Below, in pieces: positions 8,046 to 63,601 of a stretch of 64,000 bases of DNA (its first letter is position 1; each line of letters begins with the position of its first letter). The stretch covers positions 62,001 to 126,000 of the IMG/VR virus record IMGVR_UViG_3300037316_000027; one strand, written 5' to 3'. The notes below the pieces were generated by a model. It saw only the letters and a program-made list of their open reading frames with translations, was not told the DNA's origin and made no database searches. Source of the DNA: a virus. The position numbers were made by a program, and so were the translations under genes.

Positions 8046-8108
8046 GGTGTAGTCGTTCGCCGACATTCCGTCAATCCAAAACGTCGGCGGTGGTTAACGT
8101 CGGGTTAA
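8046..8108 (-). promoter_or_regulatory. Leftward promoter with TTAA-N7-TTAAC box
   Basis: Read on the minus strand: TTGACG at 8074-8069, a 17-nt spacer, and TACACC at 8051-8046. A box TTAA-N7-TTAACC lies upstream with its half-sites at 8108-8105 and 8097-8094. The second half-site starts 23 nt before the -35, as at most other promoters of this phage. The box centre is near -62 from the predicted start. The TTAA-N7-TTAAC pattern matches the CtrA consensus. Confidence 0.6.
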
Positions 8109-8365
8109 AAGAACTCGATCCGGGTCTGATCGTGAAACTTCGGCTCATTGTCGGCAGTGAATTCGATCCCGAAGCTTTTGCCCGGATCGACCTTGTCCTT
8201 GCTCAGATAGCCGAAGCCCCGGTACTGGCGAGCGTCCATCAGAACGCTTTCGACGAAGCTCTGAATGTGCTTACGGCCGTCCGCGTAGTCGTTCTCACTT
8301 GTACGGAACACGGCGTTGGCTTTCGCCTTCAGGGCGGCGAGATGGATCGTTGTGCGCTTGGACAT
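8105..8365 (-). CDS. Unknown protein, 86 residues
   Basis: It starts MSKRTTIHLAALKAKANAVF and has a central helix followed by strands (YRGFGYLSKDKV, SFGIEFTAD). Its TAA stop lies inside the TTAA-N7-TTAA box of the next promoter. It is compact and probably globular. Function is unknown. Confidence 0.8.
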   Translation of the reverse strand: MSKRTTIHLAALKAKANAVFRTSENDYADGRKHIQSFVESVLMDARQYRGFGYLSKDKVDPGKSFGIEFTADNEPKFHDQTRIEFF

Positions 8366-8371
8366 TTGATT

Positions 8372-8557
8372 TCAATCCTCGTCAATGGGTTCGTCGTGCC
8401 AGTAGTTCGGGTCGGTCAGCACGTCGGGGCGATACCCGGCGAGCTTTTGCTTTTCGCACTTGCTACAGGTGTAGCATAAGAAGATGTTGCGCGCGTCGTG
8501 CTGCGCCTCCGGGTATTCTCCGGAGCCGCAGGGACATTGCTGAAGTCTACGCGGCAT
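8372..8557 (-). CDS. Small zinc-binding protein, 61 residues
   Basis: It starts MPRRLQQCPCGSGEYPE at the ATG at 8557, which overlaps the upstream gene by 11 nt. CPCGSGE and CYTCSKCEK supply four or five Cys for one zinc site. The pattern is like small phage zinc ribbons. Function is unknown. Confidence 0.8.
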   Translation of the reverse strand: MPRRLQQCPCGSGEYPEAQHDARNIFLCYTCSKCEKQKLAGYRPDVLTDPNYWHDEPIDED

Positions 8558-8840
8558 GACACTCCCCACTCGCGATCAGGGTCGCTGCGGTCCGGCCGAA
8601 GAAGCCTTGCAGCTTCCAGCACAGGCCGGTGTTGATCAGGTGTTGCCACGCGGAGCGCAGCGCCTCAGCATCGTGGTCCTCGCCGTCGAAGCCTTCGCAG
8701 GCGGCGACCGCATCGTAGTCGGTCCAGACGCGTTGCTCTTCCAGCTTGACCCCGGCATCGTGCGCCATCTTCTTGGCGGCGGTCGGATATGGGGCGGGCT
8801 TCACGTCGCTCTTCAGTGTCGGTTTGCGTTTGGCAGTCAT
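8547..8840 (-). CDS. Unknown protein, 97 residues
   Basis: A basic N-terminal tail (MTAKRKPTLKSDVKPAPY) is followed by a helical region. That region contains EDHDAEALRSAWQHLINTG, LCWKLQGFFGRTA and a C-terminal Cys-His. The form 'W..Li..G..w.LqG..gR...' recurs in small phage proteins of unknown function. Confidence 0.8.
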   Translation of the reverse strand: MTAKRKPTLKSDVKPAPYPTAAKKMAHDAGVKLEEQRVWTDYDAVAACEGFDGEDHDAEALRSAWQHLINTGLCWKLQGFFGRTAATLIASGECHAA

Positions 8841-9046
8841 GGTAGCACCACTATGGTTTGGGATCGGCGCATGACGGCGATCCGGGTTGCCTCCTTGAGC
8901 GCGGAGGGATAGGTCTGATCGACTTTCGAGCTGACGAAGTGGTCGCGCTCTGTCACGCGGTCGGTTACCAGCTTGAAGGTCCAGTAGCCGCGACCGCGAG
9001 GCTTGCGCCCCATCACTCGCTCGTAAATTTCAGTGCTCACTTTCAT
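8837..9046 (-). CDS. Unknown protein, 69 residues; first gene behind leftward promoter
   Basis: It starts MKVSTEIYERVMGRKPRGRG, then a strand-rich basic domain (GYWTFKLVTDRV, YPSALKEATRIA). The -10 element lies only 7 nt before the ATG at 9046, so the transcript should be almost leaderless. Function is unknown. Confidence 0.75.
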   Translation of the reverse strand: MKVSTEIYERVMGRKPRGRGYWTFKLVTDRVTERDHFVSSKVDQTYPSALKEATRIAVMRRSQTIVVLP

Positions 9047-9052
9047 GCAGTC

Positions 9053-9114
9053 AACATACACCCTCCCGGAGCGCATGCAAGCCAAACCACTCGGCATAGT
9101 TAACGCTTGGTTAA
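9053..9114 (-). promoter_or_regulatory. Leftward promoter with TTAA-N7-TTAAC box
   Basis: Minus strand: TTGCAT at 9080-9075, a 16-nt spacer, and TATGTT at 9058-9053. The box spans 9114-9100 with seven bases between the TTAA half-sites. Its second half-site starts exactly 23 nt before the -35. The core resembles the rightward promoter at 9168-9195: both have TTGCA, a GGGAG-containing spacer and GTGTATGTTG. The two form an inverted pair. Confidence 0.7.
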
Positions 9115-9133
9115 CGCCTGCGGCACAGGGGTC

Positions 9134-9195
9134 TTTACGATCTGTTAACCACCCTGAGCGGCTTTGCTTGCAGGTTCTACGGGAGAGTGTATGTT
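9134..9195 (+). promoter_or_regulatory. Rightward promoter with TTTA-N7-TTAACC box
   Basis: TTGCAG at 9168-9173, a 16-nt spacer, and TATGTT at 9190-9195. The half-sites TTTA at 9134 and TTAACC at 9145 are 7 nt apart. The second starts 23 nt before the -35, so the box centre lies near -61. This promoter drives the plus-strand block 9230-11365. Confidence 0.7.
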
Positions 9196-9229
9196 GTGGA
9201 TATCGAGAAACGAACAAGGACATCAGCAC

Positions 9230-9643
9230 ATGCTTTACGTTTCAACAGTACGCAGCTCGGTAGACGACAAACTCCTGAGCGCAGTTGCGACCAGCGAATA
9301 CCATCCCGATTTCGAAACCCGGAACGACTGGAAAACATTCGAAGAGGCGAAGGAAGTCGCCGCCGTTCTTGGTGCCGACTACGTCGCGACCGATGCCGGT
9401 CAATGGACTTCGCCCCGGTACGACGTGATCAAGCTGCCGAAAGTCGGCGACAAGATCAGCAAGGCATTCAACGGCGACAGCTATCCGAGCGGTACGATCA
9501 AGTCGATCAGCAAGTCGCTCCGGGTGATCATCACCGACGAAGGCGAAAAGTTCTACCGCATCCGGGAGACCGGGAGCTGGCGCAACAACGGCACGTGGTT
9601 CTTGACCCCGGGCCACGTCTACACTCAGAACCCCTCATTCTAA
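9230..9643 (+). CDS. Unknown protein, 137 residues
   Basis: I chose the ATG at 9230 because AAGGA lies about 9 nt upstream; an in-frame ATG at 9191 is possible. The product has an N-terminal alpha/beta part and a C-terminal strand-rich part (VGDKISKAFNGDSYPSG, SKSLRVIITDEG, FYRIRETGSWR) that looks like a small barrel. Similar 'VGDpVS..inGD.yP.G.I..is' domains occur in phages. Function is unknown. Confidence 0.85.
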   Translation: MLYVSTVRSSVDDKLLSAVATSEYHPDFETRNDWKTFEEAKEVAAVLGADYVATDAGQWTSPRYDVIKLPKVGDKISKAFNGDSYPSGTIKSISKSLRVIITDEGEKFYRIRETGSWRNNGTWFLTPGHVYTQNPSF

Positions 9644-9653
9644 GGAACGCACC

Positions 9654-9878
9654 ATGCTGCCGAAAGTCATCAACTTCATCCCTCGTGGCCACTGCGGGTT
9701 TCTCCCGCAGCGGTACTTCTACCGCGTCGTCGGGAAGCGCGCGCCCAAGAAGGGCGAGTTCTATCTGTCCGGCGCGATCGTCGAAGCTTACGAGGCCCTG
9801 TTCGACATGGCGGACGAATACACCATCGTCGAAAAGGCCCATCGGGCCAAGACGATTACGATTGAGGTTCCAGCATGA
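9654..9878 (+). CDS. Unknown protein, 74 residues
   Basis: It starts MLPKVINFIPRGHCGFLPQR, then YFYRVVGKRAPKKGEFYLSG, a beta-rich pattern, and ends in a helix plus strand. The form 'kyYRv.g..PKkGEfYLSGA' recurs in phage proteins of unknown function. It overlaps the next gene by ATGA. Confidence 0.8.
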   Translation: MLPKVINFIPRGHCGFLPQRYFYRVVGKRAPKKGEFYLSGAIVEAYEALFDMADEYTIVEKAHRAKTITIEVPA

Positions 9879-10045
9879 CCCGGCCGGTCGAAATGTCCGA
9901 AGGGTTCGCCGCGTTCTACGTCGGCGCGAACAAGAAGTGGCGCGTCGCACGCGACGCCCGGGGTGAGATAATTCTGTGCGAGACCGAAGCTCTCGCGAAC
10001 TCTGTCGCCCGCTACCGCAGGCGTCGTCTGAAAATCTGGAGCTGA
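9875..10045 (+). CDS. Small basic protein, 56 residues
   Basis: The product MTRPVEMSEGFAAFYVGANK... is basic at the C-terminus (RYRRRRLKIWS). It starts at an ATGA overlap. The strand-like VARDARGEIILCETE suggests a small alpha/beta fold. Function is unknown. Confidence 0.75.
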   Translation: MTRPVEMSEGFAAFYVGANKKWRVARDARGEIILCETEALANSVARYRRRRLKIWS

Positions 10046-10049
10046 GAAA

Positions 10050-10343
10050 ATGCCGAAATTTACCGCCCTCTCTATCGAAGACCTTTTCACCGCAGAACGC
10101 GACGCCGGTCGCGTCGCCCGCAAGGTCGAGTACATCGTCGCATGCGAAGCGAGCGATGGCACTTGGTGCGAATTCGACGCCGATACCCTTCTGCACGCGA
10201 GCCTTCTGGCGGACAATGCAGTCGATAAGCTCGGGGCTCGCGGCTGCTCGGTTTGGCGCGTGCGCCTGATCGATGGTAAGCTCGTGGGCACCAGCGGACA
10301 GCTCCCCGGTCGGCTTCCCTTGTATAAACACTTCGCTGCTTGA
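10050..10343 (+). CDS. Unknown protein, 97 residues
   Basis: It starts MPKFTALSIEDLFTAERDAG, preceded by a weak ribosome-binding site (GAGAAA). The central part (YIVACEASDGTWCEFDAD) and the end (VWRVRLIDGKLVGTS) look like a beta-strand framework. Function is unknown. Confidence 0.75.
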   Translation: MPKFTALSIEDLFTAERDAGRVARKVEYIVACEASDGTWCEFDADTLLHASLLADNAVDKLGARGCSVWRVRLIDGKLVGTSGQLPGRLPLYKHFAA

Positions 10344-10396
10344 ACCCCAAGCTGTCCCTCGTTCGACGACAGCGCCAACTTCTAACGGAGCAAACC

Positions 10397-10594
10397 ATGA
10401 GCAAGATCACGTACCATGCCGAAGATGAAACCGATACCAAGGTTCGCGTCTATTCTGGTGGCCTTCGCGTCGGCACCATCAAGCAGGAGACCGAGGCTGG
10501 TAGCGAAGGCTATCGCTACTACCCGAAGGGCAACAAGTACGGCGGCGACTTCTACAAGTCGCTGGCCGCGTGCAAACGATCACTGGAGGGTTGA
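10397..10594 (+). CDS. Unknown protein, 65 residues
   Basis: The ATG at 10397 follows a GGAG ribosome-binding site. The product (MSKITYHAEDETDTKVRVYS...) is strand-rich and contains EGYRYYPKGNKYGGDFYKSL. The '.YyPkg...g.ff.tl.acK.SLe' form is widespread in small alphaproteobacterial and phage proteins of unknown function. Confidence 0.8.
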   Translation: MSKITYHAEDETDTKVRVYSGGLRVGTIKQETEAGSEGYRYYPKGNKYGGDFYKSLAACKRSLEG

Positions 10595-10597
10595 GCC

Positions 10598-10996
10598 GTG
10601 GCAAAACACTGGAGCGATGTTCTGGTCTGTCAGTGCGGCAAGCGATTTCGATCGATGTCGGCTGAGGCCGTGCACCGGCACAACTTCCCGGCGCTCTGTC
10701 GGCGCAAGCCGAAGGCCGCGTGGGAAGTCGTCGCTGGGCTGGAGTGGACGCGCAAGCAGGACGGCTTCGATAACTCGGGTCGTCCGATGTACGAATACGA
10801 GGCGCACCATGGGAAAATTCATTTCGACATCGTCAAGAGCACGGACGCCGGGTTCGGCATCAGCGTGCATGACGGCGAGAAGTATCTGACCCATCACTTC
10901 GGCATCGAATGGCGGCGCACGCTTGGCAATTGTCAGGCCCGCGCCGTGCAGATCATGAACCTTGTTAGAGCAAAGGAAAAGTCATGCACGGTCTAG
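10598..10996 (+). CDS. Zinc-finger-like unknown protein, 132 residues
   Basis: A GTG start lies 4 nt after the previous stop. Residues 8-35 hold CQCGKRFRSMSAEAVHRH and a later Cys, an arrangement that could bind zinc. The rest is strand-rich and contains KSTDAGFGISVHDGEKY. Function is unknown; nucleic-acid binding is possible. Confidence 0.75.
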   Translation: MAKHWSDVLVCQCGKRFRSMSAEAVHRHNFPALCRRKPKAAWEVVAGLEWTRKQDGFDNSGRPMYEYEAHHGKIHFDIVKSTDAGFGISVHDGEKYLTHHFGIEWRRTLGNCQARAVQIMNLVRAKEKSCTV

Positions 10997-11214
10997 GTGA
11001 GATCAGGCGGATGAACAATAATCTCTCGCGTAACGGTCGGGGGTCGCCGTGGGAAGTTCGTTGGCCCACACGCTGGCCCGCGTCCGGCGAAAGAATTTTC
11101 AGTGTCGTCCGTGTCGCGGACGGCGTGGTCGAAAGTACGCACCCCAAACTCAGATTGGCCCGGCGCGCTGTCGTGACCCTGATCAAAAACGGGGAGCGCA
11201 CCGATGGTGCTTGA
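10984..11214 (+). CDS. Unknown basic protein, 76 residues
   Basis: It starts MHGLGEIRRMNNNLSRNGRG 9 nt after AAGGA. It is Arg/Trp-rich and ends in a basic helix (KLRLARRAVVTLIKNGER). It overlaps both neighbours. Function is unknown. Confidence 0.75.
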   Translation: MHGLGEIRRMNNNLSRNGRGSPWEVRWPTRWPASGERIFSVVRVADGVVESTHPKLRLARRAVVTLIKNGERTDGA

Positions 11215-11365
11215 CATTCACGACGAGATCATTTTGGAGCTTGCGCGGCTCCAACGGGCGGCCTTTGACGCCGTCCGCAAGCGCTGTGCTGAACAACAGC
11301 TCGGCGAGGCTTGGGTCGATTTCGAAACCGCCCATGTCGATGAACATCCGCGCAAGACTGCGTGA
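11204..11365 (+). CDS. Small helical protein, 53 residues
   Basis: The product MVLDIHDEIILELARLQRAA... is mostly one or two amphipathic helices. It is the last gene of the rightward block and converges on the minus-strand gene at 11412. I saw no clear terminator in the 46-bp gap. Function is unknown. Confidence 0.65.
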   Translation: MVLDIHDEIILELARLQRAAFDAVRKRCAEQQLGEAWVDFETAHVDEHPRKTA

Positions 11366-11411
11366 CCTTTTCGCTGATCTTTTCGCGGCATCGTTTTTCA
11401 TAATTCGGCCA

Positions 11412-11624
11412 TCAATTGCCCGGGATGCAGTCGGGATCGCATTGATTGAAGATCGTCGGCGGCTCCGGCTTCGGCGGCTCGGCCTTGTAGGCGCTCTTGA
11501 GCATATCGGCCGCGATCAGCTCGAAGTTGTCCCAGTTCTTCGAGTTGCTGGCTGTCAGCTCCGCCATGTCCCGCAGCATCTTCGCGGCCCCTGCCACGTC
11601 CATAATCTGGGTCACCTTAGCCAT
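11412..11624 (-). CDS. Unknown protein, 70 residues
   Basis: It starts MAKVTQIMDVAGAAKMLRDM and forms a helical N-terminal part followed by a Pro-rich tail with two Cys (NQCDPDCIPGN). It is the last gene of the long leftward transcript and overlaps the previous one by 8 nt. Function is unknown. Confidence 0.75.
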   Translation of the reverse strand: MAKVTQIMDVAGAAKMLRDMAELTASNSKNWDNFELIAADMLKSAYKAEPPKPEPPTIFNQCDPDCIPGN

Positions 11625-11979
11625 TTTGACCCCGCGCGGCGGCGATGACGTTCGCGTTGTCCTTGACGACCACGCTCTTGACCGCCTTGGCGACCTTGGT
11701 GAGCCCAGCCATGAGCCCGACCGGCGCAAGCGGGGCAACCCCACCCCGCTTCTTGCCGTGCGTTGGGTAGACCTTGCTACGCGCTACACCAGTGTACTGA
11801 CGACCGAGGAAGACCGGCCGCGCCTTGCGGTCACCGACCGGCTTGTGCGGGACCTGTGGCCCTTCGGAACGAACGCCCTTGACCGCGACCCTCTCGCCGG
11901 CCACGGCGATGAATGTCTTGGCATTGCGGTACGCCTTCTGAGGCGAGCGGTTTCGTTTCGTGCGGCGTGTCTTAGCCAT
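11617..11979 (-). CDS. Highly basic protein, 120 residues
   Basis: The N-terminal half is packed with Lys and Arg (MAKTRRTKRNRSPQKAYRN...). The C-terminal half has a hydrophobic Gly/Ala/Val stretch (APVGLMAGLTKVAKAVKSV). Such composition fits a nucleic-acid- or membrane-binding phage protein. It has no domain match. Confidence 0.75.
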   Translation of the reverse strand: MAKTRRTKRNRSPQKAYRNAKTFIAVAGERVAVKGVRSEGPQVPHKPVGDRKARPVFLGRQYTGVARSKVYPTHGKKRGGVAPLAPVGLMAGLTKVAKAVKSVVVKDNANVIAAARGQNG

Positions 11980-12205: not shown

Positions 12206-12241
12206 GTACAGTTCATCTCCTTGCGAATCATGCCTATCCGG

Positions 12242-14150: not shown

Positions 14151-14272
14151 GGCCAGATCAATCCGAAGCCTGCGATGTACGAGAAAAATTCCAAGACCAC
14201 GATGCTTACCAGATACGCCGCGATGATAACCGCGACGGTGACAGCAAGAGCTTTGATCGCCCAAACTCTCAT
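14141..14272 (-). CDS. Single-helix membrane peptide, 43 residues
   Basis: The product MRVWAIKALAVTVAVIIAAY... is hydrophobic over nearly its whole length, with one clear transmembrane helix and perhaps a second. It starts at an ATGA overlap. Function is unknown. Confidence 0.65.
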   Translation of the reverse strand: MRVWAIKALAVTVAVIIAAYLVSIVVLEFFSYIAGFGLIWPWT

Positions 14273-22702: not shown

Positions 22703-22866
22703 TGGCGATGGCTCTTGTGATCATGCTCGGTCGCGAGGATGCGCGCGCGGGTCAGCTTAATCTGGGTCATCAGGTCGTCGTTGATCGGCGAGGCTGATGT
22801 GATCCACAAGGTGCGCATGATCACGAGCTGATTGCTCAGTAGCAGGAGAAGGTCTTCGCGTGACAT
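22699..22866 (-). CDS. Small helical protein; first gene of the leftward operon
   Basis: The 55-residue product (MSREDLLLLLSNQLVIMRTL...) is helical and lies directly behind the promoter at 22902-22930, with a 36-nt leader. Function is unknown. Confidence 0.7.
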   Translation of the reverse strand: MSREDLLLLLSNQLVIMRTLWITSASPINDDLMTQIKLTRARILATEHDHKSHRQ

Positions 22867-22901
22867 CGTTCACTCCAGATTTGCCGGACCGGCGGAGCTT
22901 T

Positions 22902-22930
22902 TGCCTAGTTGAAAACCGGAACTGTGTCAA
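22902..22930 (-). promoter_or_regulatory. Leftward promoter of the 11.4-22.9 kb operon
   Basis: Minus strand: TTGACA at 22930-22925, a 17-nt spacer, and TAGGCA at 22907-22902. The spacer contains one copy of a 13-bp direct repeat. No TTAA-N7-TTAA box lies at the usual distance, so control differs from the other promoters. Confidence 0.65.
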
Positions 22931-22990
22931 GGGAAGTTTTTCTTAAACCCGAATTTTTAATTTTTCTGAATTCCGACTTGAAAACCGGAA
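22909..22990. repeat. Two 13-bp direct repeats flanking the leftward promoter
   Basis: TTGAAAACCGGAA occurs at 22909-22921 (inside the promoter spacer) and at 22978-22990, 69 bp apart. A protein bound to the first would block RNA polymerase, so the pair could be an operator with looping. This is inference. Confidence 0.55.
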
Positions 22991-23134
22991 GGTGTGTGCG
23001 CACAAGGGCACATAGCACTTTCGGCCGATCGCCGATTTTGGGGTCCTACCCCGTATGTCTGCGCCGCCACGGTAGCACCAACCTTGCCAGCCCCTCAAGC
23101 ACGCGCAGGTTGTAATTCATCATGTGGTTTATAA

Positions 23135-23515
23135 TTAAGGTTAATGGTTCGATCTGCTAACGTGGTTACTAGTTAAGGTTAATAGGCTCCCTACCCTAGG
23201 GCTGGCGTTAACGTTAATAGTTAAGGTTAATGCACGATAGTCTAGCGTAGCGCATGCTGGCGTTAACCTTAATAGTTAAGGTTAACGCCAAGTGGTATAG
23301 TAGTAGGGTTGACAGCCCCCTACAGGGGTGGTTAACCTTAATTAGTAACCCTACCTACAGCCGGGGGCTTGTGTAACGCCCTGATACAGGGTATAAGTGC
23401 TTGATATTGCTAGCCAAAGGGCGTTGGTAGGGTTAATAGTTAAGATTTACCTAGCTCCGTGTACGTTAAGGTTAATGAGTAAGGTTAACGCGCCCCTGAT
23501 TAGGGTTAATCTTAA
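23135..23515. repeat. TTAAGGTTAA repeat cluster, candidate origin or operator array
   Basis: Seven exact TTAAGGTTAA decamers occur: plus orientation at 23135, 23173, 23221, 23276 and 23466; minus orientation at 23263 and 23332. Two variants are TTAACGTTAA at 23208 and TTAATCTTAA at 23506. More partial copies (TTAATAGTTAAG near 23432) lie between. The cluster sits between the divergent operons in the largest non-coding stretch of the window (22867-24024). It also holds a small CCCC-TACA-GGGG hairpin near 23320. Iterons of a replication origin or a regulator array are the main readings. Confidence 0.75.
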
Positions 23516-23543
23516 CTATGTTGACAGCCGGCGCTTGACATGC

Positions 23544-23696
23544 ATGCGCTACGGTAGCAGATGGCGGATGCCAACTAAGCGGCGGAGCAACCATAGACCC
23601 GACAATCAATCGCTCATCATGTTCAGATGGTGTACCGAGCGGCTGAGCGATAATCAAATCAAGCACTTAAGAGCCGATTATACAGGAAACTTGTGA
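23544..23696 (+). CDS. Possible small basic protein, 50 residues
   Basis: The frame MRYGSRWRMPTKRRSNHRPD... ends TERLSDNQIKHLRADYTGNL, which could be a short DNA-binding helix. Base composition is less GC-rich than known genes and there is no ribosome-binding site. It may be chance within the intergenic hub. Confidence 0.25.
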   Translation: MRYGSRWRMPTKRRSNHRPDNQSLIMFRWCTERLSDNQIKHLRADYTGNL

Positions 23697-23719
23697 TGTT
23701 TTGCATGGTGGCCTTTCTG

Positions 23720-23753
23720 AGTATAGCCGATATACTGACACTTCCGATAGTGT
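23720..23753. promoter_or_regulatory. Two adjacent inverted repeats
   Basis: AGTATA-GCCGA-TATACT (23720-23736) is followed at once by ACACT-TCCGAT-AGTGT (23738-23753). Both could bind a dimeric regulator or form small hairpins. They lie about 200 bp upstream of the rightward promoter at 23953. The rest of 23754-23952 shows nothing I can name. Confidence 0.4.
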
Positions 23754-23952
23754 ATATCCTGTATTCTGTAGCATGAACTTAGAGAAGACAGTAAGGACCA
23801 TGTGTAACCGTGAATAAGCGATTGATTTGTCAACTATAAAAGCCTCTCACTCTTCATTGAGTTAATCACAGGCTTCACTGAGTACCTGAGTAGAAGATTG
23901 TCCAACAGTTTCAAGGATCGGCACCCGGCCAGCCCGCTCAAAGCGGCAAAAC

Positions 23953-23981
23953 TTGACAGTGTCAGAAACCCGTGATAATGA
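23953..23981 (+). promoter_or_regulatory. Rightward promoter with palindromic -35 region
   Basis: TTGACA at 23953-23958, a 17-nt spacer, and TAATGA at 23976-23981. The palindrome TGACAGTGTCA (23954-23964) covers most of the -35, a likely operator. It would drive the rightward block that starts at 24025. Confidence 0.65.
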
Positions 23982-24024
23982 CCCCAAACGACCCCTCAAA
24001 AACGACCCCTAAAAAGGCATCAAA

Positions 24025-24537
24025 ATGACGACAATTCGCCGACCACTCGCACGCTCCTATCCCGAGATCGCCGCCGCTCAAGGGCTGACAAACGCCGGCC
24101 ACGTGAACCGCACAGGCTTGAGCCGAGCCGAGCGAGCGGTGCTCGATGTTGGTCCACGGTCAAGGCGAGAGGCTACGGTAGAAGAGCAAATAGTCCGAAA
24201 CGAGAAATACGTGATCAGCCTTCTACGCCCGACAGCGGAGATTAACAACAGGGAGATCGAGCGGGACCGCGTCAAGCTTGCGGTGGTCCACAACACGGCC
24301 GACCAATTGGAGTTGACTGGTGCGGATCGGGACTACTTCGTTGCCAGTTACGGGACCGACAGCGGCACGATACGGGCTGCGAAAGCGGGAGGCCATCTCT
24401 TGACAGCGGTCAACTTGAAAGCCTCTGTAGGCGTTCCTGAGACGCCTTACGAGATGATGGAGCGCCTTGGCCTGACCGAACAGGAGCGCGAACGTCTCGG
24501 CGAATTCACCGTCACCATCACATGGGCGAGAGCTTGA
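24025..24537 (+). CDS. Unknown protein, 170 residues; first rightward gene
   Basis: It starts MTTIRRPLARSYPEIAAAQG. Residues 10-60 look like a helical, possibly DNA-binding domain (GHVNRTGLSRAERAVLDVG). The end, TPYEMMERLGLTEQERERLG, is a charged helix. Its position right behind the promoter with a palindromic operator would suit an early regulator, but no family is recognised. Confidence 0.8.
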   Translation: MTTIRRPLARSYPEIAAAQGLTNAGHVNRTGLSRAERAVLDVGPRSRREATVEEQIVRNEKYVISLLRPTAEINNREIERDRVKLAVVHNTADQLELTGADRDYFVASYGTDSGTIRAAKAGGHLLTAVNLKASVGVPETPYEMMERLGLTEQERERLGEFTVTITWARA

Positions 24538-41529: not shown

Positions 41530-41546
41530 ACCCTTACACCTTCTCG

Positions 41547-41598
41547 TTAACTATGTCCAGCCCCCGCATGTTGACAATGCTCTCGGCCTGTGTACGCT
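41547..41598 (+). promoter_or_regulatory. Rightward promoter with TTAAC half-site
   Basis: TTGACA at 41571-41576, a 16-nt spacer, and TACGCT at 41593-41598. A TTAACTAT half-site starts at 41547, 24 nt before the -35, near the position seen at other promoters; the second half-site is not recognisable. Drives 41677 onward. Confidence 0.6.
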
Positions 41599-41676: not shown

Positions 41677-42204
41677 ATGCCACACGATCCGTGCATCAAA
41701 GCTCTTGCCCGTGCTCTCGATCTTGAGTGTTGGGAGAGCTACTCCGGCCAGCCTGTCGCGATCAAGCGCGCGCTCGACAAGAGACGCACCGCCGCGCTCC
41801 GCACCGCGCAGGAAACCGTTGACGAAATCTTCGCTGAAAATTCCCCCAAGCCCGAGAGAAGTCCCATGCATGCTAAACACTCAACCGGATTTGAATTCGT
41901 CCTAGAAGACGAGCCGCCGCGATACCATTCGTCGGTGATGAAGATCGAGATGATGCTGCACTTCGCGACGATCGCCGGGCCATTCGTTCCCGAGGCTCAG
42001 CGCACGTCGCCGGCCTACACGAAGTTCGTCAAGCAGTTGCTCGCCGACGATCTGATCGAGCGGCCGACGCATGCACAACGCAGCATGCACCCGGGCTGGG
42101 CGTACATCGCGACCGAGCGCGGACGCGCCTACGTCGAAGCCCTCAAGGATATGCAGTTGCCCGTCGCGTTGAAGACGACCACCACGTGGCGCATCCCCGA
42201 GTGA
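41677..42204 (+). CDS. Unknown protein with possible winged helix, 175 residues
   Basis: AAAAGGAG lies 12 nt before the ATG. The N-terminal half is charged and helical. The C-terminal half (KFVKQLLADDLIERPTHAQ, GWAYIATERGRAYVEAL) follows the 'l..Ll..gLi.r.......y.lT..G..yv..l' pattern of winged-helix domains. A regulator of this operon is plausible. Confidence 0.75.
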   Translation: MPHDPCIKALARALDLECWESYSGQPVAIKRALDKRRTAALRTAQETVDEIFAENSPKPERSPMHAKHSTGFEFVLEDEPPRYHSSVMKIEMMLHFATIAGPFVPEAQRTSPAYTKFVKQLLADDLIERPTHAQRSMHPGWAYIATERGRAYVEALKDMQLPVALKTTTTWRIPE

Positions 42205-42904: not shown

Positions 42905-42966
42905 ACCCGGCTTGACTAGCCGGGTCTTTCGGTCTAAGAGCCATTATCGTTAACGAATTCTTAACC
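42905..42966 (+). promoter_or_regulatory. Terminator hairpin overlapping a promoter and TTAA-N7-TTAAC box
   Basis: ACCCGGCT-N5-AGCCGGGT (42905-42925) followed by CTTTC can end the previous transcript. TTGACT at 42912-42917, inside the hairpin, a 17-nt spacer and TAAGAG (42935-42940) form a promoter. A perfect TTAA-N7-TTAACC box (half-sites at 42950 and 42961) lies at about +10 from the predicted start, where binding should repress rather than activate. Confidence 0.55.
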
Positions 42967-51497: not shown

Positions 51498-52567
51498 CCT
51501 CGCTTGCCGAAAGAGCACGGGAGCACGGGTTGCGCCCGGACCTTGTCGTAGATCGGAAGCGACGCGGTTGGCCCGAAGAACAGTGGTTCATTCCGCCCGG
51601 CCCAAGACAGCCGCGTCCCGATAACGGGAGGCTCGCCGAAAGGGCACGTGAGCGCGGGCTCCTTCCGCAAATTGTATATAATCGGAAGCGGGCGGGCTGG
51701 CCCGAAGAGCTATGGTTCGTGCCGCCTATACCACAGTCTGAGACCGCAAAGCGAGTGAACGCCGTTCGGTGGTCAAATGGCTCGCTATCCGAGAGGGCGC
51801 GGGAGCATGGGCTCTCTCGGGGAATTGTATATAATCGGAAGCGGTCGGGCTGGCCCGAAGAGCTATGGTTCGTGCCGCCTATACCACAGTCTGAGACCGC
51901 AAAGCGGGGGAACGCCGCCAAAAATGATTTGCCTATTCGAAAAGTCAATCGCTTGATTGCTGGGCTCGCGATTGAGAGCGGCATTGATCCTCAACTGGCG
52001 ATAGTGCGTGTACGACGTGGGGAGAGTATTCATATTGCATGTTCAACTCCACCCGAAAGGCGCGCGAATGCTAAATCCGGTCAAACGGGTTCGCTCTCCG
52101 AAAGGGCACGGGAGCACGGATTGCGCCCAGACCTCCCCCTATCCCGGAGAGCCGCAGGCTGGCCCGAAGAGCTATGGTTCGTGCCGCCCTTATCATCTTC
52201 TGAGACTGTAGAACGGATGCGCGCTGCAAGTCGAACAGACGCGGGCAACCCGGTTCGCGGGTCACTATCTGAAAGGGCGCGTGAGCACGGGCTCTCTCGG
52301 GGAATTGTCCATAAGCGGAAAGTCGCGGGCTGGCCCGAAGAGTTATGGTTCGTGCCGCCGTTATCCGCGCTCGAAGCTACTAAGCGCGCCCACAATGTCC
52401 AATCGGAAAACTCCCTCTCTAAAAGAGCACGGGAGCACGGATTGCGCCCAGACCTCCCCTTATCCCGGAGAGCCGCAGGCTGGCCCGAAGAGCTATGGTT
52501 CGTGCCGCCCCTATCCCGCTCTGAGGTCCTAAAGCGCGCCTGCAAAGCCCATGAAAATAGCTGTTGA
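51494..52567 (+). CDS. Tandem HTH-like repeat protein, six copies plus one degenerate
   Basis: A GTG start (GTGA overlap) encodes 357 residues built from repeats of about 45-100 residues. Each repeat has L(S/A)ERAREHGL, a variable stretch of about ten residues, then RKxxGWPEELWFVPP. The fourth copy has decayed (LIAGLAIESGIDPQLAIVRV). The core looks like a helix-turn-helix in which only the second helix varies. Related single motifs occur in homing endonucleases. The DNA repeats are nearly identical, so the array expands and contracts. Sequence-specific DNA binding is inferred. Confidence 0.85.
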   Translation: MTSLAERAREHGLRPDLVVDRKRRGWPEEQWFIPPGPRQPRPDNGRLAERARERGLLPQIVYNRKRAGWPEELWFVPPIPQSETAKRVNAVRWSNGSLSERAREHGLSRGIVYNRKRSGWPEELWFVPPIPQSETAKRGNAAKNDLPIRKVNRLIAGLAIESGIDPQLAIVRVRRGESIHIACSTPPERRANAKSGQTGSLSERAREHGLRPDLPLSRRAAGWPEELWFVPPLSSSETVERMRAASRTDAGNPVRGSLSERAREHGLSRGIVHKRKVAGWPEELWFVPPLSALEATKRAHNVQSENSLSKRAREHGLRPDLPLSRRAAGWPEELWFVPPLSRSEVLKRACKAHENSC

Positions 52568-57435: not shown

Positions 57436-57437
57436 AA

Positions 57438-59184: not shown

Positions 59185-59731
59185 GCACGTTGAGAAGTAT
59201 CCGGGTCTGTACGCGGGCGCGAAGGCTGTCGGGATGCAGTACGTCACGGCTCTCAATCGCGCCCGGAAGGGCATGAGTGTCGCCGACGCGCTGGCGATGC
59301 CGGTTCGTCGATACGGGCACATCCGTCCGATCCCGTTGACAGTCACGCAGCGTCAGATCGCGCATACCGCGCGCTTTATGGACAAGATACATCGACAAGT
59401 CGCGGAAGCCCTCAGTCCGTCGCGAATGATCCGTAAACGTTACATTGTGCGCTCGAATGATACGTCTCCGGCTCATATCCGCCACCTGCGCGCTGCCTAC
59501 TGCGCTCACTTCATCAAATTCGGCACGCTCGACGAGGGCATGTCAAAACAACTCAGGGACTACGCCCATGAATGTCGAACAGCTCAAAAGCATTCTCGAC
59601 GAGTACCCGATGAGTATGCGGCTCACCGTGACGGTCCGGCAACAGGAGCTATTAGCGACAACGGTCGTCGAGTTGTTAAGCAAATTGATGACGCAACTGC
59701 CCGGAGCGTCGCTGACTTTCTTCGGGCGTAA
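59177..59731 (+). CDS. Basic unknown protein, up to 184 residues
   Basis: It starts MSKHVEKYPGLYAGAKAVGM, which overlaps the helicase end by 8 nt. The first 130 residues look genuine (GMQYVTALNRARKGMSVADA is HTH-like). From 59568 on, the frame runs under the next gene for 164 nt with less typical codons, so the true end may be earlier in an ancestral form. It may be a DNA-binding protein. Confidence 0.65.
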   Translation: MSKHVEKYPGLYAGAKAVGMQYVTALNRARKGMSVADALAMPVRRYGHIRPIPLTVTQRQIAHTARFMDKIHRQVAEALSPSRMIRKRYIVRSNDTSPAHIRHLRAAYCAHFIKFGTLDEGMSKQLRDYAHECRTAQKHSRRVPDEYAAHRDGPATGAISDNGRRVVKQIDDATARSVADFLRA

Positions 59732-59822
59732 CGATTGCATCATCCGCGAACGCGTCGATCCGCACAACAACGCGCACGGCACACTGATCGTCAAGAGATG
59801 GCTTGAATTGGATTTGAGGTAG
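59568..59822 (+). CDS. Unknown protein, 84 residues
   Basis: It starts MNVEQLKSILDEYPMSMRLT. Strand-rich with GC-rich third positions typical of this phage, which favours it over the overlapping frame. Function is unknown. Confidence 0.7.
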   Translation: MNVEQLKSILDEYPMSMRLTVTVRQQELLATTVVELLSKLMTQLPGASLTFFGRNDCIIRERVDPHNNAHGTLIVKRWLELDLR

Positions 59823-59827
59823 AGCAC

Positions 59828-60088
59828 ATGGCAAAGCATCTTCCCCTGATCACGCGGCTGACGCGCCAGATCGGCACGGCCGAGTATCCCAATGCGCGCG
59901 ACGAAGCGGTCCGCATCCTGCGCGAGCGTGGTCATATAAAGCAAAATTCCGAAGAACTTACCGTAGAAGGTAAAAGGCGCGAAGCCATGGGGCCTGCCGG
60001 TCGCGCAATCGATCGAGCGGCGAAGCAGTCCGGGCGGCCGAAGAGTGACTACAAGTATGTCGGCGGAAGTCGGGCGGTGCTGAAGTGA
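59828..60088 (+). CDS. Basic protein, 86 residues
   Basis: It starts MAKHLPLITRLTRQIGTAEY. The first half is helical (ARDEAVRILRERGHIKQNSE) and the second half basic and flexible. 'A..iL...G.i..gs..LT..G..R..mg.agRaidR.ak.sgr....Y.Y' is a known small phage type without a role. Confidence 0.75.
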   Translation: MAKHLPLITRLTRQIGTAEYPNARDEAVRILRERGHIKQNSEELTVEGKRREAMGPAGRAIDRAAKQSGRPKSDYKYVGGSRAVLK

Positions 60089-60360
60089 GTGACGACTGGC
60101 GCAACCCTCCGCCTAGGACGAAGTACCGCATGATGTGGAAAGGCGAGTGGCGTCCGGTTCTCAACATGATTGACGCGAGCAACACGCCGACAACGTTGCC
60201 CGTGCGAGCGGCGAAGGCCGTGCTCTATGTCGCGCACCGACACGTGGTCGCGATCCCGGTTGGGCCGGCCGACATTTTGGAGAATGCCGACTATCGAACT
60301 TCCGCGTGGGAGACCATTGGCCCTGATCCCAGCGATGACGACGCCGATACGGACCATTAA
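60085..60360 (+). CDS. Unknown protein, 91 residues
   Basis: A GTG start (GTGA overlap) gives MSDDWRNPPPRTKYRMMWKG. Strand-rich with an acidic tail. Its stop codon TAA forms part of the TTAAC half-site of the next promoter. Function is unknown. Confidence 0.7.
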   Translation: MSDDWRNPPPRTKYRMMWKGEWRPVLNMIDASNTPTTLPVRAAKAVLYVAHRHVVAIPVGPADILENADYRTSAWETIGPDPSDDDADTDH

Positions 60361-60408
60361 CCAACCGCCAACATCCCTCTTGACCTGGTTATGGATCACG
60401 CCTAGTTT
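60346..60408 (+). promoter_or_regulatory. Promoter with GATA-N7-TTAACC box
   Basis: TTGACC at 60380-60385, a 17-nt spacer, TAGTTT at 60403-60408. TTAACC starts at 60357, exactly 23 nt before the -35; the first half-site (GATA at 60346) is degenerate. It drives the gene at 60438. Confidence 0.65.
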
Positions 60409-60437
60409 CGTACCTGCAACGCAAACAGGAGTAACCC

Positions 60438-61172
60438 ATGCGTGGACTTTCTGAAATACGTTCTACCAATGAAGACCCGTCTGCATCCTTTCGCTCGCGA
60501 GAACCGCAGCACGGCCACGTCGAGAGCGGTGACAAGAACATCTCTTTCGAAAGCAACATGGCGGAGAAGCGCCGCCGGGAAGAAACGGACGAGATCGAAA
60601 ACTTGCTTCGCGATCTCGGTCACGCGACCGGCCATCGCACTCTCGCTGCCCGGACTAAGGAGCAGAATGCTCGCAAGGCCCTTCAGCAACTCGACGAGCT
60701 TTTCTTCACCGCCCTGCTGCTCGATCTCTTCGCCGCCAAGACGACGCGCGTCGAGCCCGAACATCAAGAGCGGGTCGAGAGCGCAATCGATGCGGAGCCT
60801 CCGTTCCTCGCGTTCTGGCGGAAGCTCAACGAGGGTCTGACTGCTGCCGGCAAATCGGAAGCGGCTTATGGCGATGCCAAGAGAGCGTTCCTTGGCGGAC
60901 CGACGCCGGTCGGTGCCATGACGTTCGTTGGTAAGGAGTGGAATGGCATTCGCGCCATTCCCTCTGCGCCGGTCAACTCTCTCGGCGGGGTCCGTCCCGC
61001 CTATCACGGCGAGTATTGCCGCGTGACCGATCACGGCACCATCTGGGACAAGGTCACGAACAAGCACGATCTCCCCATCGCCTATGCGCTCCCCGAAGCC
61101 GCACTCATTGCCGCGAAAGATCGCCGCACTGAAATCGTGGCGACGGCTCGCGAGGCGACGGACAACAGTTAG
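60438..61172 (+). CDS. Unknown protein, 244 residues
   Basis: AGGAG lies 7 nt before the ATG. A disordered N-terminus (1-40) leads to a charged helical domain (AEKRRREETDEIENLLRDLG, RKALQQLDELFFTALLLDLF). A smaller strand part follows (GAMTFVGKEWNGIRAIPSAP). It has its own promoter and terminator, so it is likely a well-expressed protein of importance. No family recognised. Confidence 0.8.
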   Translation: MRGLSEIRSTNEDPSASFRSREPQHGHVESGDKNISFESNMAEKRRREETDEIENLLRDLGHATGHRTLAARTKEQNARKALQQLDELFFTALLLDLFAAKTTRVEPEHQERVESAIDAEPPFLAFWRKLNEGLTAAGKSEAAYGDAKRAFLGGPTPVGAMTFVGKEWNGIRAIPSAPVNSLGGVRPAYHGEYCRVTDHGTIWDKVTNKHDLPIAYALPEAALIAAKDRRTEIVATAREATDNS

Positions 61173-61305
61173 CCCGGCGAGGGCGTTTGCGATCGGCTTC
61201 GTCGGTCGGTGACGAAAGATATCCTGCGGGCCTCGCTAGCGGCTAAACGTCTTGCACCGTTCAAGGGTATTGAAGACGCGGCGGTAGGTCCCGTCGAGAG
61301 GCAAC

Positions 61306-61344
61306 CGGCCCGGCAGCGCCCAACGCGCGCCGGGCCGTTTGTTA
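61306..61344 (+). terminator. Rho-independent terminator
   Basis: CGGCCCGGC and GCCGGGCCG pair over a 14-nt loop and are followed by TTTGTT. It ends the single-gene transcript 60438-61172. The 61173-61305 stretch before it shows no well-supported gene. Confidence 0.75.
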
Positions 61345-61372
61345 TACTCAATCCGCGAAAGTAGTATAACTC

Positions 61373-61525
61373 ATGCGGCAGCAGTGGATTTTTGGGCTCG
61401 TTTTGACCGTGTTCATTCTGGCGATGACGGTCGCGATTGTCATGATCCCCGGGCGCGACCATCAAACGCGCGATTACGAGTGGCGGACCCAGCACGAGAA
61501 ATACCCCGCTGGCGACCGGGATTAA
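61373..61525 (+). CDS. Single-helix membrane protein, 50 residues
   Basis: The product MRQQWIFGLVLTVFILAMTV... has one transmembrane helix and a charged 25-residue tail. A TATACT-like element upstream (61342-61347) might serve as a -10. Its stop codon forms the first half of the next TTAA-N7-TTAACC box. Function is unknown. Confidence 0.6.
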   Translation: MRQQWIFGLVLTVFILAMTVAIVMIPGRDHQTRDYEWRTQHEKYPAGDRD

Positions 61526-61584
61526 CCGCCTGTTAACCATTATCGCATTGGGTGCTTGCTCTTCTCCGGGAGAACATCTAGGTT
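61522..61584 (+). promoter_or_regulatory. Promoter with perfect TTAA-N7-TTAACCAT box
   Basis: TTGCTC at 61556-61561, a 17-nt spacer, TAGGTT at 61579-61584. The box (61522-61540) is the best in the window and includes the full TTAACCAT half-site of the CtrA consensus. TTAAC starts 23 nt before the -35, box centre near -62. It drives the AAA+ ATPase gene. Confidence 0.75.
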
Positions 61585-61623
61585 CTGATCCATCGATCAA
61601 CCCTACAGCACTAGGAAATGCAA

Positions 61624-63294
61624 ATGACCGCGACCAAGACCATCTCGAAAGGCCAGACTGCGGCTGCCGACGTTGCTTCACTTTTGCGCGCCCGCAACTC
61701 GTTGCTCTGGATCGTCACCCGTGAAGAGCATCGCGTCGAAGGCTTTCTGTTTGAAGCCGCTGCCGCTGCTGGCTACAAGACCATGTTCTGGGACGTAGCG
61801 CAGGGCGTCACCACGATCAACGGTGAGCCTGCCAAGAACGGCAACCAGCCCATCGGTGGTGAGGACGTTGAAACGACGCTCGCCGCGATCCGTACTGCTT
61901 CCGATGTCAAGCCCAAGGCTGACGACAAAGGCAACCGCACGGTGTGGGTCATGCGCGATCTCCCCCGCTGGCTCGGCGACGGCATTGCCGGCGCGAAGCC
62001 GATGCGCCAGCTCCGCAATCTCTCGAAGCATCTCCCGCGCGTTGACCGCAAGTCGGCGCAAGCGATCATCATCCTGACCACGGAGAGCAACATCCCGGCC
62101 GATCTCGCCGGCCATGCGACGGTCATCGAATGGCCGCTCCCGGATCGTTCGGAAATCGAAAAGGTGCTGACCGACGCAATCAACTCGTTGCCGGAGTACG
62201 AGACGGACAAGGAAACGGGCGAACCAATCTTGACGAAGCCCATCCGCTCGCTTGCTGCGACCCCGGAGACGCGTGAGACCGCGATTGACGCGGCGGTCGG
62301 TCTGACTTCGGACGAGGCTGCCTCATGCTTCGCCAAGTCGCTCGTGCAAACACGTGCGATCGACCCGGTCCTCGTGTCGAATGAAAAGAAACGAGTGATC
62401 GCCCGCGAGCGCGTGCTCGAATGGATTGATCCCCTCAAGGAGGGGCTCGATGCAGTCGGCGGTCTCGATAACGTCAAGGCGTTTCTCAACGAGCGCAAGG
62501 ACGCGTATACTCCGGCCGCACGCGAGTACGGCCTGCCCGCTCCGAAGGGCATCGTGCTGACCGGCATGTCCGGCTGCGGAAAGACGCTTACCGCCAAGGC
62601 CCTCGCCACGGGCTGGAGCGTGCCTCTTCTGAGGCTCGATCTGGGCGCGCTCAAGGACAAGTTCGTCGGCGGGAGCGAAGGCAACCTCCGCAAGGCGCTA
62701 AAGGTGATCGAAGCCATTGGCCGTTGCGTGGTCCTGATCGACGAGATCGAGAAGGCGATGCAGGGTGCGACTTCTGGCTCCGCTGACGGCGGCGTCTCCG
62801 CCGATGCTCTCGGTACGATCCTGTCATGGATGCAGGATCATCCGGCCGGCGCTTTCATCATCGCGACTGCGAACGATGTCAGCTCGCTTCCGCCGGAGCT
62901 GCTGCGCAAGGGCCGTTTCGACGAAGTGTTCTTTGTCGATTTGCCGAACGCAATCGAGCGCAAGGGCGTGCTCAAGGCCGCGCTCAAGGCCAACGGCCGC
63001 GACAAGGTCAAGATCAACTTCGGTGAAGTCGCTGACGCGACCGAGGACTTCACGGGCTCGGAAGTTGCCGAGCTGGTATCGACCGCCCTGTATGCGGGCT
63101 TCGCTGACAGTGTCCGCGAAATCACAACCGAGGACTTGATCCTCGCCGCGTCCAAGGTCGTGCCGCTGGCGAAGACCAAGGCCGACAAGATGACTGAGCT
63201 GCGCAAGTGGGGTAAGGCCAACGCTCGCCCGGCCACCAGTGCGACGAAGCTGGAAGTTGTTTCTGGCGGAAGTCGTCAGATCGATCTCGGCTAA
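61624..63294 (+). CDS. AAA+ ATPase, FtsH/SpoVK-like module
   Basis: AGGAAA precedes the ATG at 61624 (an ATG at 61618 is in frame). The 556-residue product has an N-terminal domain of about 250 residues (LLRARNSLLWIVTREEHRVE). The AAA+ core follows: Walker A GMSGCGKT, Walker B VVLIDEIEKAM, sensor 1 FIIATANDVSSLP and arginine finger LRKGRFDEVFF, then a small helical lid. No protease domain is fused. Such ATPases remodel proteins; in phages the target is unknown. It has the best regulated promoter of the window. Confidence 0.92.
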   Translation: MTATKTISKGQTAAADVASLLRARNSLLWIVTREEHRVEGFLFEAAAAAGYKTMFWDVAQGVTTINGEPAKNGNQPIGGEDVETTLAAIRTASDVKPKADDKGNRTVWVMRDLPRWLGDGIAGAKPMRQLRNLSKHLPRVDRKSAQAIIILTTESNIPADLAGHATVIEWPLPDRSEIEKVLTDAINSLPEYETDKETGEPILTKPIRSLAATPETRETAIDAAVGLTSDEAASCFAKSLVQTRAIDPVLVSNEKKRVIARERVLEWIDPLKEGLDAVGGLDNVKAFLNERKDAYTPAAREYGLPAPKGIVLTGMSGCGKTLTAKALATGWSVPLLRLDLGALKDKFVGGSEGNLRKALKVIEAIGRCVVLIDEIEKAMQGATSGSADGGVSADALGTILSWMQDHPAGAFIIATANDVSSLPPELLRKGRFDEVFFVDLPNAIERKGVLKAALKANGRDKVKINFGEVADATEDFTGSEVAELVSTALYAGFADSVREITTEDLILAASKVVPLAKTKADKMTELRKWGKANARPATSATKLEVVSGGSRQIDLG

Positions 63295-63304
63295 AAAGCA
63301 ACTA

Positions 63305-63328
63305 CTCCCGGGGAATGGTCCCCGGGAG
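63305..63328 (+). terminator. Perfect intercistronic hairpin
   Basis: CTCCCGGGGA-ATGG-TCCCCGGGAG has 10-bp arms, no T-tract and is followed by ACTACCT, as at 43511-43532. It probably stabilises or processes the AAA+ mRNA rather than fully terminating it. Confidence 0.6.
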
Positions 63329-63350
63329 ACTACCTACCGGAGAAAACAAG

Positions 63351-63542
63351 GTGAAAAACTTTATCGCAGACGGCCAAAACCGTTACTTCATCCTCAATGG
63401 CGGCGGGCGCATGGCTATCAAACCTCTGGGACAACGACGCCCGGTTCTTCATGCCAGCAAGCTCTCTTTCAAACACGACGCGGCTCGCCAGCGGCAGTAC
63501 ATGCGAAACCAACACCACGGCGCTTCACGCGGGCGGGCTTAA
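63351..63542 (+). CDS. Small basic protein, 63 residues
   Basis: A GTG start with GGAG and AAGG upstream gives MKNFIADGQNRYFILNGGGR. Strand-rich first half, Arg/His-rich end. Its stop codon lies in the next TTAA-N7-TTAAC box. Function is unknown. Confidence 0.75.
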   Translation: MKNFIADGQNRYFILNGGGRMAIKPLGQRRPVLHASKLSFKHDAARQRQYMRNQHHGASRGRA

Positions 63543-63601
63543 CCCTTCATTAACTATCCCCTGAGCTTGTACGTGACAAGCTCAAGGTTCTCAGCTAGAA
63601 C
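63539..63601 (+). promoter_or_regulatory. Promoter with TTAA-N7-TTAAC box
   Basis: GTGACA at 63573-63578, a 17-nt spacer, TAGAAC at 63596-63601. The perfect TTAA-N7-TTAACTAT box (63539-63557) has TTAAC 23 nt before the -35. It drives the last gene of the window. Confidence 0.65.

What the first reader, a model, noticed from the sequence alone, without database searches (positions are those of the whole stretch)
8046..63601. A phage-wide promoter class with TTAA-N7-TTAAC boxes fixed 23 nt upstream of the -35
Seven sigma70-like promoters (leftward 8074 and 9080; rightward 9168, 41571, 60380, 61556, 63573) each have a TTAAC half-site starting 23 nt (once 24) before the first base of the -35. Four have a perfect TTAA 7 nt further up (8094, 9100, 61522, 63539), one has TTTA (9134) and one GATA (60346). 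The box centre falls at about -61, the classic class I activator position. TTAA-N7-TTAAC is the CtrA consensus of Alphaproteobacteria. So host CtrA, or a phage regulator copying its site, may time phage transcription to the host cell cycle. The fixed distance across both strands is very unlikely by chance.
Basis: partly seen in the sequence, partly recalled or inferred. Interest (0 to 1): 0.88.

Follow-up and report, generated by a model that had tools for sequence, protein, structure and literature searches.

The report
Phage promoters with CtrA-type upstream boxes
A group of unnamed phages carries about ten promoters per genome in which a copy of the binding site of the bacterial cell-cycle regulator CtrA sits at one fixed distance upstream, so the phages probably read the host's cell-cycle state to time their own genes, from a position different from the one known in other CtrA-controlled phages.

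Summary
The window is half of a near-complete ~126.6-kb phage record. All seven promoters are as described. Seven IMG/VR relatives (68-85% identical DNA polymerase) carry the same class: TTAAC-to-TTG distance 23 occurs 37 times against a mean of 6.3 at other distances (P~6e-17), the -10 lies 46 nt downstream, and a second half-site lies 11 bp upstream. A model trained only on relatives recovers nine promoters here (0.4 expected). The core is an alphaproteobacterial sigma-73 promoter; the box, TTAACG-N5-TTAACCAT, contains both published CtrA motif forms. No OmpR-type regulator was found in the eight records, so host CtrA is the best candidate, acting from about -61. In phiCbK, whose CtrA activation is proven, the same box replaces the -35, 31 bp (three helical turns) nearer the -10. 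CtrA binding, activation and cell-cycle timing are untested; the host is unidentified. Also found: GANTC (the CcrM site) is all but absent, and covarying hairpins sit on the -35 of the two promoters preceding g222 and g223. Verdict: new variant of a known kind (CtrA-controlled phage promoters).

The parts
8046..8108 (-). class promoter 1: TTAA-N7-TTAAC box 8093-8108, -35 TTGACG (first base 8074), -10 TACACC (8051-8046); drives a small ORF starting at 8017
   Evidence: 31.8 bits; held-out 28.3
9053..9114 (-). class promoter 2: box 9099-9114, -35 TTGCAT (first base 9080), -10 TATGTT; left half of the divergent pair
   Evidence: (36.0 bits)
9134..9195 (+). class promoter 3: box 9134-9149 (distal half TTTA), -35 TTGCAG 9168, -10 TATGTT 9190; right half of the divergent pair, 42 bp from promoter 2's TTAAC; that spacing is identical in five phages
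   Evidence: (36.4 bits)
   Evidence: 22.6 bits; 24.5
41536..41598 (+). class promoter 4: TTAAC 41547, spacing 24, -35 TTGACA 41571, -10 TACGCT; upstream of g188 (winged-helix-like protein); orthologous promoter in G004, another class promoter before g188 in G001
   Evidence: (19.1 bits); not above 14 in the held-out test (105)
60346..60408 (+). class promoter 5: TTAAC 60357, -35 TTGACC 60380, -10 TAGTTT 60403; upstream of g219; conserved before g219 in G001, G004, G005, G006
   Evidence: (33.9 bits)
61522..61584 (+). class promoter 6: box 61522-61537, -35 TTGCTC 61556, -10 TAGGTT 61579; upstream of the AAA ATPase g221; conserved in all six relatives that carry g221 (in G003 387 nt upstream)
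   Evidence: (33.9 bits)
63539..63601 (+). class promoter 7: box 63539-63554, -35 GTGACA 63573, -10 TAGAAC 63596; upstream of g222; conserved in all six relatives that carry g222
   Evidence: (26.6 bits)
63559..63587 (+). inverted repeat (hairpin) centred on the -35 of promoter 7; structure kept with unrelated arm sequences in all g222 and g223 promoters of the clade (13 of 13)
61624..63294 (+). g221, AAA ATPase with its own class promoter
   Evidence: (PF00004 5.8e-26)
60438..61172 (+). g219, unknown protein with its own class promoter
9230..9643 (+). g107 (phrog_9742, unknown), downstream of promoter 3
41677..42204 (+). g188, weakly MarR-like winged-helix protein; candidate phage regulator (rival)
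42949..42965 (.). double palindromic TTAA-N7-TTAAC box 20 nt before the start of g191, without a -35 at 23 nt; may be an overlapping (repressor-type) site; not a class member

Best explanation
These are vegetative (sigma-73/RpoD-type) phage promoters placed under host CtrA. CtrA~P, bound as a dimer to TTAACG-N5-TTAACCAT centred near -61, would contact RNA polymerase from upstream (class I style) and raise transcription of scattered small phage units, among them the single-gene promoters before g219, the AAA ATPase g221, g222 and g223, and a divergent pair of small-ORF blocks. The phage would thereby express them mainly in cells with active CtrA. Shown here: the promoter class, its fixed geometry, its conservation in the clade, its sigma-73 core, its CtrA-type box, and the lack of a detectable OmpR-type regulator in the records. 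Inferred: that CtrA is the protein, that it activates, and that cell-cycle timing is the purpose.
For: Spacing and PWM statistics. A -10 peak 46 nt from TTAAC, found without using the -35 (CTA at offset 45: 26 against a mean of 5.6). Distal half-site at exactly -11 in 29 of 53 promoters (<=1 mismatch; 0-7 at every other offset), that is TTAA-N7-TTAA. TTAACCAT extension in columns not used for selection, a published CtrA motif form (PMC6180460). The box at G005 3853, TTAACGGTTTATTAAC, differs by one base from TTAACGGTTTGTTAAC of the phiCbK gp005 and gp018 promoters, which CtrA binds and activates (PMC9437464). Alphaproteobacterial setting: -35 TTGaC / -10 GCTANAWC core (PMC8144410), a Usg gene found only in Caulobacter among 14 control genomes, GANTC nearly eliminated. 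Divergent pair with invariant 42-bp spacing in five phages at 40-57% identity, where the invariant runs are mainly the boxes and -35s. Orthologous promoters before g219, g221, g222 and g223. No Trans_reg_C domain in any record.
Against: Activating CtrA sites in Caulobacter and Rhodobacter overlap the -35 (PMC4287350, PMC6180460), and phiCbK follows that rule; no class I CtrA promoter was found in the papers read. The host is unidentified. Many phage ORFs are of unknown function, including a winged-helix-like protein conserved in the clade. Nearly half of the promoters have a poor distal half-site. No binding or expression data.
Confidence: 0.57

Rival explanations
1. The boxes are read by another protein: a phage-encoded regulator (for example g188, winged-helix-like) or a different host regulator that uses TTAAC sites (MucR, SciP or another OmpR-family protein). 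Geometry and activation are as above, but the signal is not CtrA.
For: g188 is conserved in the clade, resembles MarR-type winged helices weakly (MarR E=0.12; Foldseek MarR/HxlR hits with E 0.07-0.2 on a model of pLDDT 65) and has its own class promoter in G000, G001 and G004. SciP ChIP peaks contain TTAACAT, and SciP sites lie at -60 to -90 (PMC4287350).
Against: MarR-type proteins usually bind palindromes (general knowledge), whereas this is an 11-bp direct repeat that matches CtrA in both published motif forms. The footprinted SciP motif is GCGNC, not TTAAC (PMC4287350). No OmpR-type domain in the phages.
Confidence: 0.22
2. Host CtrA binds but mainly silences: box occupancy holds these promoters down in swarmer-like cells, as proposed for lytic deferment, and they fire when CtrA is cleared.
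For: CtrA represses DELTA_120 of phage vB_BsubS-Delta (PMC9437464); upstream CtrA sites can lower pilA expression (PMC11264516).
Against: Repressing CtrA sites in Caulobacter cover the -10 (PMC4287350); here the box lies clear of the core promoter at a fixed distance, which is what upstream activation needs.
Confidence: 0.14
3. The TTAAC boxes are AT-rich UP-element-like docking sites for the RNA polymerase alpha subunit, with no regulator.
For: TTAACCAT at about -58 to -51 overlaps the distal UP position (general knowledge).
Against: Sequence-specific direct repeat with fixed 11-bp period and GC-rich spacers; no A-tracts.
Confidence: 0.04
4. Chance coincidence of TTAAC and -35-like sequences.
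For: In the window alone the spacing is only moderately significant (P~1.4e-3 for TTG at 23).
Against: Clade-wide P~6e-17, held-out recovery, orthologous conservation.
Confidence: 0.01

Closest known systems
CtrA-activated promoters of Caulobacter phage phiCbK (gp005, gp018) and of Mesorhizobium phage Cp1R7A-A1 gp019 (Mascolo et al. 2022, PMC9437464)
   Same: Phage promoters carrying TTAA-N7-TTAAC boxes in an alphaproteobacterial setting; one relative's box is 15 of 16 identical to the phiCbK boxes.
   Different: In phiCbK the box takes the place of the -35 (CTA of the -10 at offset 14 from TTAAC). Here it lies 31 bp farther up (offset 45), above an intact -35/-10, and the promoters are dispersed over the genome. 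The spaced class was not found in the stretches searched of phiCbK, Lacusarx and MMDA13. Cp1R7A-A1 was not examined.
Caulobacter CtrA-activated promoters, including pilA with several upstream sites (PMC4287350, PMC11264516)
   Same: Same box type; pilA shows that upstream CtrA sites can modulate a promoter.
   Different: Host activator sites overlap the -35; in pilA the upstream sites accompany a -35 site and are irregularly spaced. Here only the upstream site exists, at one fixed distance.
Class I activator promoters (for example CRP at -61.5)
   Same: Single activator box centred near -61 above a complete sigma-70-type core.
   Different: No activator-polymerase contact is shown.
Roseobacter phage RDJL3 and Rhodobacter phage RcRudolph (closest alphaproteobacterial isolates by DNA polymerase or terminase)
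   Same: Related DNA polymerase and terminase (43% and 58% identity for RDJL3; 53% terminase for RcRudolph); both strongly avoid GANTC.
   Different: About half the genome size and, in the 50 kb searched of each, no members of the promoter class.

Membership tests
CtrA-controlled phage promoters (Mascolo 2022 type) | TTAA-N7-TTAA(C) sites placed at promoters | tested here: met
   Distal half-site at -11 in 29 of 53 class promoters; four perfect full sites among the seven reported promoters.
CtrA-controlled phage promoters (Mascolo 2022 type) | sites concentrated in one terminal repeat or gap region (low positional entropy) | tested here: not met
   Perfect N7 sites lie at five dispersed loci over 55 kb; the one dense TTAA cluster (window 23.1-23.5 kb) has 6/7/13-bp spacing and no N7 pair. 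Positional entropy itself was not computed.
CtrA-controlled phage promoters (Mascolo 2022 type) | alphaproteobacterial host with CtrA | tested here: inconclusive
   Usg gene, sigma-73-type core, GANTC elimination and alphaproteobacterial phage kin point to it; host not identified.
CtrA-controlled phage promoters (Mascolo 2022 type) | CtrA binds and changes expression | not testable with these tools
   Needs gel shift or footprint and reporter fusions.
Activating CtrA promoters (Caulobacter rule) | box overlaps or replaces the -35 | tested here: not met
   TTAAC to -10 distance is 46 nt, against 15 in phiCbK (CTA peaks at 45 and 14).
Alphaproteobacterial sigma-73 promoters | -35 TTGaCgS and -10 GCTANAWC | tested here: met
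   Column frequencies (cTTG[AC]C-N17-cTANATC); consensus from PMC8144410.
OmpR-family activator encoded by the phage | Trans_reg_C (PF00486) domain in the phage genome | tested here: not met
   0 of 8 records; control finds it in Caulobacter. Most relatives' records are fragments.

The most novel reading that the evidence does not exclude
In two promoters of the clade (before g222 and g223; 13 of 13 examined) an inverted repeat of about 10-13 bp with freely changing but complementary arms puts the -35 in or beside the loop of a hairpin. If this acts in DNA (a supercoiling-dependent cruciform that exposes or hides the -35 next to the CtrA box) rather than as an RNA terminator of the gene before it, it would be a new kind of promoter switch combining host cell-cycle state with template topology.
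Probability: 0.08. Interest if true: 0.85.

Novelty: new variant of a known kind. Interest (0 to 1): 0.62.

Why it matters
If host CtrA drives these promoters, a phage lineage unrelated to phiCbK has put a dispersed set of its genes, including an AAA ATPase, under the host cell-cycle regulator. It would have done so with an activator position not reported for CtrA in the papers read, 31 bp (about three helical turns) upstream of the phiCbK position. That makes two questions directly testable with short reporter fragments in standard Caulobacter strains: whether CtrA can act as a class I activator, and whether such phages time infection to the cell cycle.

Tried and rejected
Chance rejected. 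The TTAAC cluster at window 23.1-23.5 kb is not part of the class: 6/7/13-bp spacing, never 11. Two of the matches to TTAAC-N18-TTG (record 58415 and 85512) were set aside for lack of a -10. A scan of 2.9 million viral contigs with the full pattern gave 27 stretches against 7 for a spacing-shifted control; the high-GC ones with homologues of this phage are clade members, most of the rest are AT-rich contigs without homologues and probably chance. Phage regulator search: most other small proteins gave no regulator family in Pfam or PHROGs; g188 kept as a rival. The hairpins were first taken for intrinsic terminators, but no T-run follows in the sequences examined.
Full report
What the window is. 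The window is bases 62001-126000 of a 126,820-base virus record. The record's ends overlap by 197 bases at 97% identity, so it is close to a complete genome of about 126.6 kb. It is a tailed phage: its terminase is 58% identical to that of Roseobacter phage RDJL3 and 53-55% to Pseudomonas phages such as Ab18 and PaMx74; its DNA polymerase is at most 43% identical to any isolate. Seven IMG/VR relatives with 68-85% identical DNA polymerase were fetched (G001-G007). G005 and G006 are close to each other, so G006 was left out of the non-redundant counts.

The observation. All seven promoters are in the sequence as described, with 23-nt spacing in six and 24 in one; the hexamer at 63573 is GTGACA. 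In the window alone the signal is moderate (TTG at distance 23: P about 1.4e-3). In the clade it is overwhelming: over seven non-redundant records TTG lies 23 nt after TTAAC 37 times and 24 nt 18 times, against a mean of 6.3 at other distances (P about 6e-17). Without using the -35 at all, the -10 peaks at one distance (CTA at offset 45: 26 against a mean of 5.6). A second half-site lies at exactly -11 in 29 of 53 promoters, against 0-7 at every other offset. A weight-matrix scan gives 60 hits above 18 bits in 654,619 bases, none in dinucleotide-type shuffles and 2-9 when the spacing is shifted. Because that matrix was built from some of the same sites, I repeated it with this genome held out: nine promoters score 24-32 bits, while 100 shuffles give 0.42 hits above 14 on average, at most 4, and spacing-shifted scans give 2-5.

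Anatomy. The consensus is TTAACG-N5-TTAACCAT, then 14-15 nt, then cTTG[AC]C-N17-cTA-N-ATC. The core matches the RpoD/sigma-73 consensus of Caulobacter, TTGaCgS and GCTANAWC (PMC8144410). The box matches both published CtrA motif forms, TTAA-N7-TTAA and TTAACCAT (PMC6180460).

Conservation. Orthologous class promoters lie before g219 (five phages), the AAA ATPase g221 (seven), g222 (seven) and g223 (six). A divergent pair (window 9103- and 9145+) is kept in five phages with exactly 42 bp between the two TTAAC starts, although the 180-bp regions are only 40-57% identical ungapped; the invariant runs are mainly the boxes and the -35s. The same 42-bp pair occurs in further contigs found by a pattern scan of viral contigs (L097, whose sites match those of G004, and L104).

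Who reads the boxes. No Trans_reg_C domain was found in any of the eight records, while the same search finds it in Caulobacter; most of the relatives' records are fragments. Three things point to an alphaproteobacterial host: the sigma-73-type core; a Usg gene, a family found only in Caulobacter among 14 control genomes; and the near-absence of GANTC, the CcrM site. GANTC occurs 2 times in this genome and 0 times in five relatives where dinucleotide counts predict 342-541 each, and no other tested 4-bp or NN-N-NN palindrome is comparably depleted. The host itself was not found. The strongest sequence link to CtrA is with phiCbK: its gp005 and gp018 promoters, bound and activated by CtrA in experiments (PMC9437464), carry TTAACGGTTTGTTAAC; the G005 promoter at 3853 carries TTAACGGTTTATTAAC.

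Difference from what is known. CtrA-controlled phage promoters are known (Mascolo 2022, PMC9437464), so the idea of host CtrA timing phage genes is not new. What differs is position and distribution. Activating CtrA sites overlap the -35 in Caulobacter and Rhodobacter (PMC4287350, PMC6180460), and in phiCbK the CTA of the -10 lies at offset 14 from TTAAC. Here it lies at 45, 31 bp farther, about three helical turns. The spaced class was not found in the stretches searched of phiCbK, Lacusarx, MMDA13, RDJL3 and RcRudolph (50-70 kb of each). The sites are dispersed instead of concentrated; the one dense TTAA cluster, in the AT-rich intergenic region at window 22.9-24.2 kb, has 6/7/13-bp spacing, never 11, and is conserved as such in five relatives. 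It looks like an origin or partition region (inference).

Hairpins at the -35. In the promoters before g222 and g223 (13 of 13 in the clade; G005 and G006 near-identical) the best inverted repeat is centred within -1 to +2.5 nt of the first base of the -35; it is significant against shuffles in 12 of the 13 and P=0.12 in the other. It folds as a hairpin of -15 to -30 kcal/mol with the -35 bases in or beside the loop, while the g219 and g221 promoters give -3 to -10. The arms differ in sequence between phages, with compensatory changes at 4 and 7 pairs in the two sets. About 0.4 strong hairpins would be expected that close to class promoters by chance; nine are seen (my estimate from the counts). 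In the junctions inspected, the stop codon of the preceding gene often lies inside the TTAA box or just before it. The simplest reading is a 3' hairpin of the upstream gene that overlaps the next promoter. No T-run follows, so an ordinary intrinsic terminator is not certain, and a DNA-level (cruciform) role is not excluded.

Verdict. Promoter class: established in sequence. Host CtrA as activator: most likely (0.57), untested. Phage or other host regulator 0.22, CtrA as silencer 0.14. New variant of a known kind.

Noticed in passing
whole record G000 and relatives G001, G004-G007: GANTC, the CcrM/HinfI site, is all but absent: 2 in 126.8 kb here and 0 in five relatives (342-541 expected each by dinucleotide counts), while the divergent relative G003 has 342 of 662 expected. 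RDJL3 (5 of 189) and RcRudolph (8 of 160) avoid it too.
   Followed up: partly
window 22866-24211 (cluster 23144-23516): AT-rich intergenic region between diverging gene blocks with more than 20 TTAAC copies in 6/7/13-bp spacing, conserved in five relatives: a candidate replication origin or partition site, distinct from the promoter boxes.
   Followed up: partly
window 63559-63587 and the orthologous junctions before g222 and g223 in relatives: Covarying hairpins centred on the -35 element; strong hairpins occur 19-29 times per genome in the larger records, about 2-4 times the shuffled number.
   Followed up: partly
one of the window ORFs in alignment A2 (window 26800-61525): A homologue of Tad3, an inhibitor of type I Thoeris defence (PF25185, E=5.3e-29), and a weak ribosome modulation factor match (PF04957, E=1.8e-4).
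   Followed up: no
window 51530-52567: g207 consists of several copies of a repeat like SLSERAREHGL...GWPEELWFVPP; only a weak DUF3293 match. Function unknown.
   Followed up: no
record 1-25 kb (outside the window): Ten tRNA genes, Usg, RtcB, GDP-mannose dehydratase, transketolase-like, pfkB and cytidylyltransferase genes: host-like surface-sugar and metabolic genes.
   Followed up: no
window 42949-42965: Double palindromic TTAA-N7-TTAAC box immediately before g191, without the promoter geometry; possible overlapping repressor-type site.
   Followed up: no
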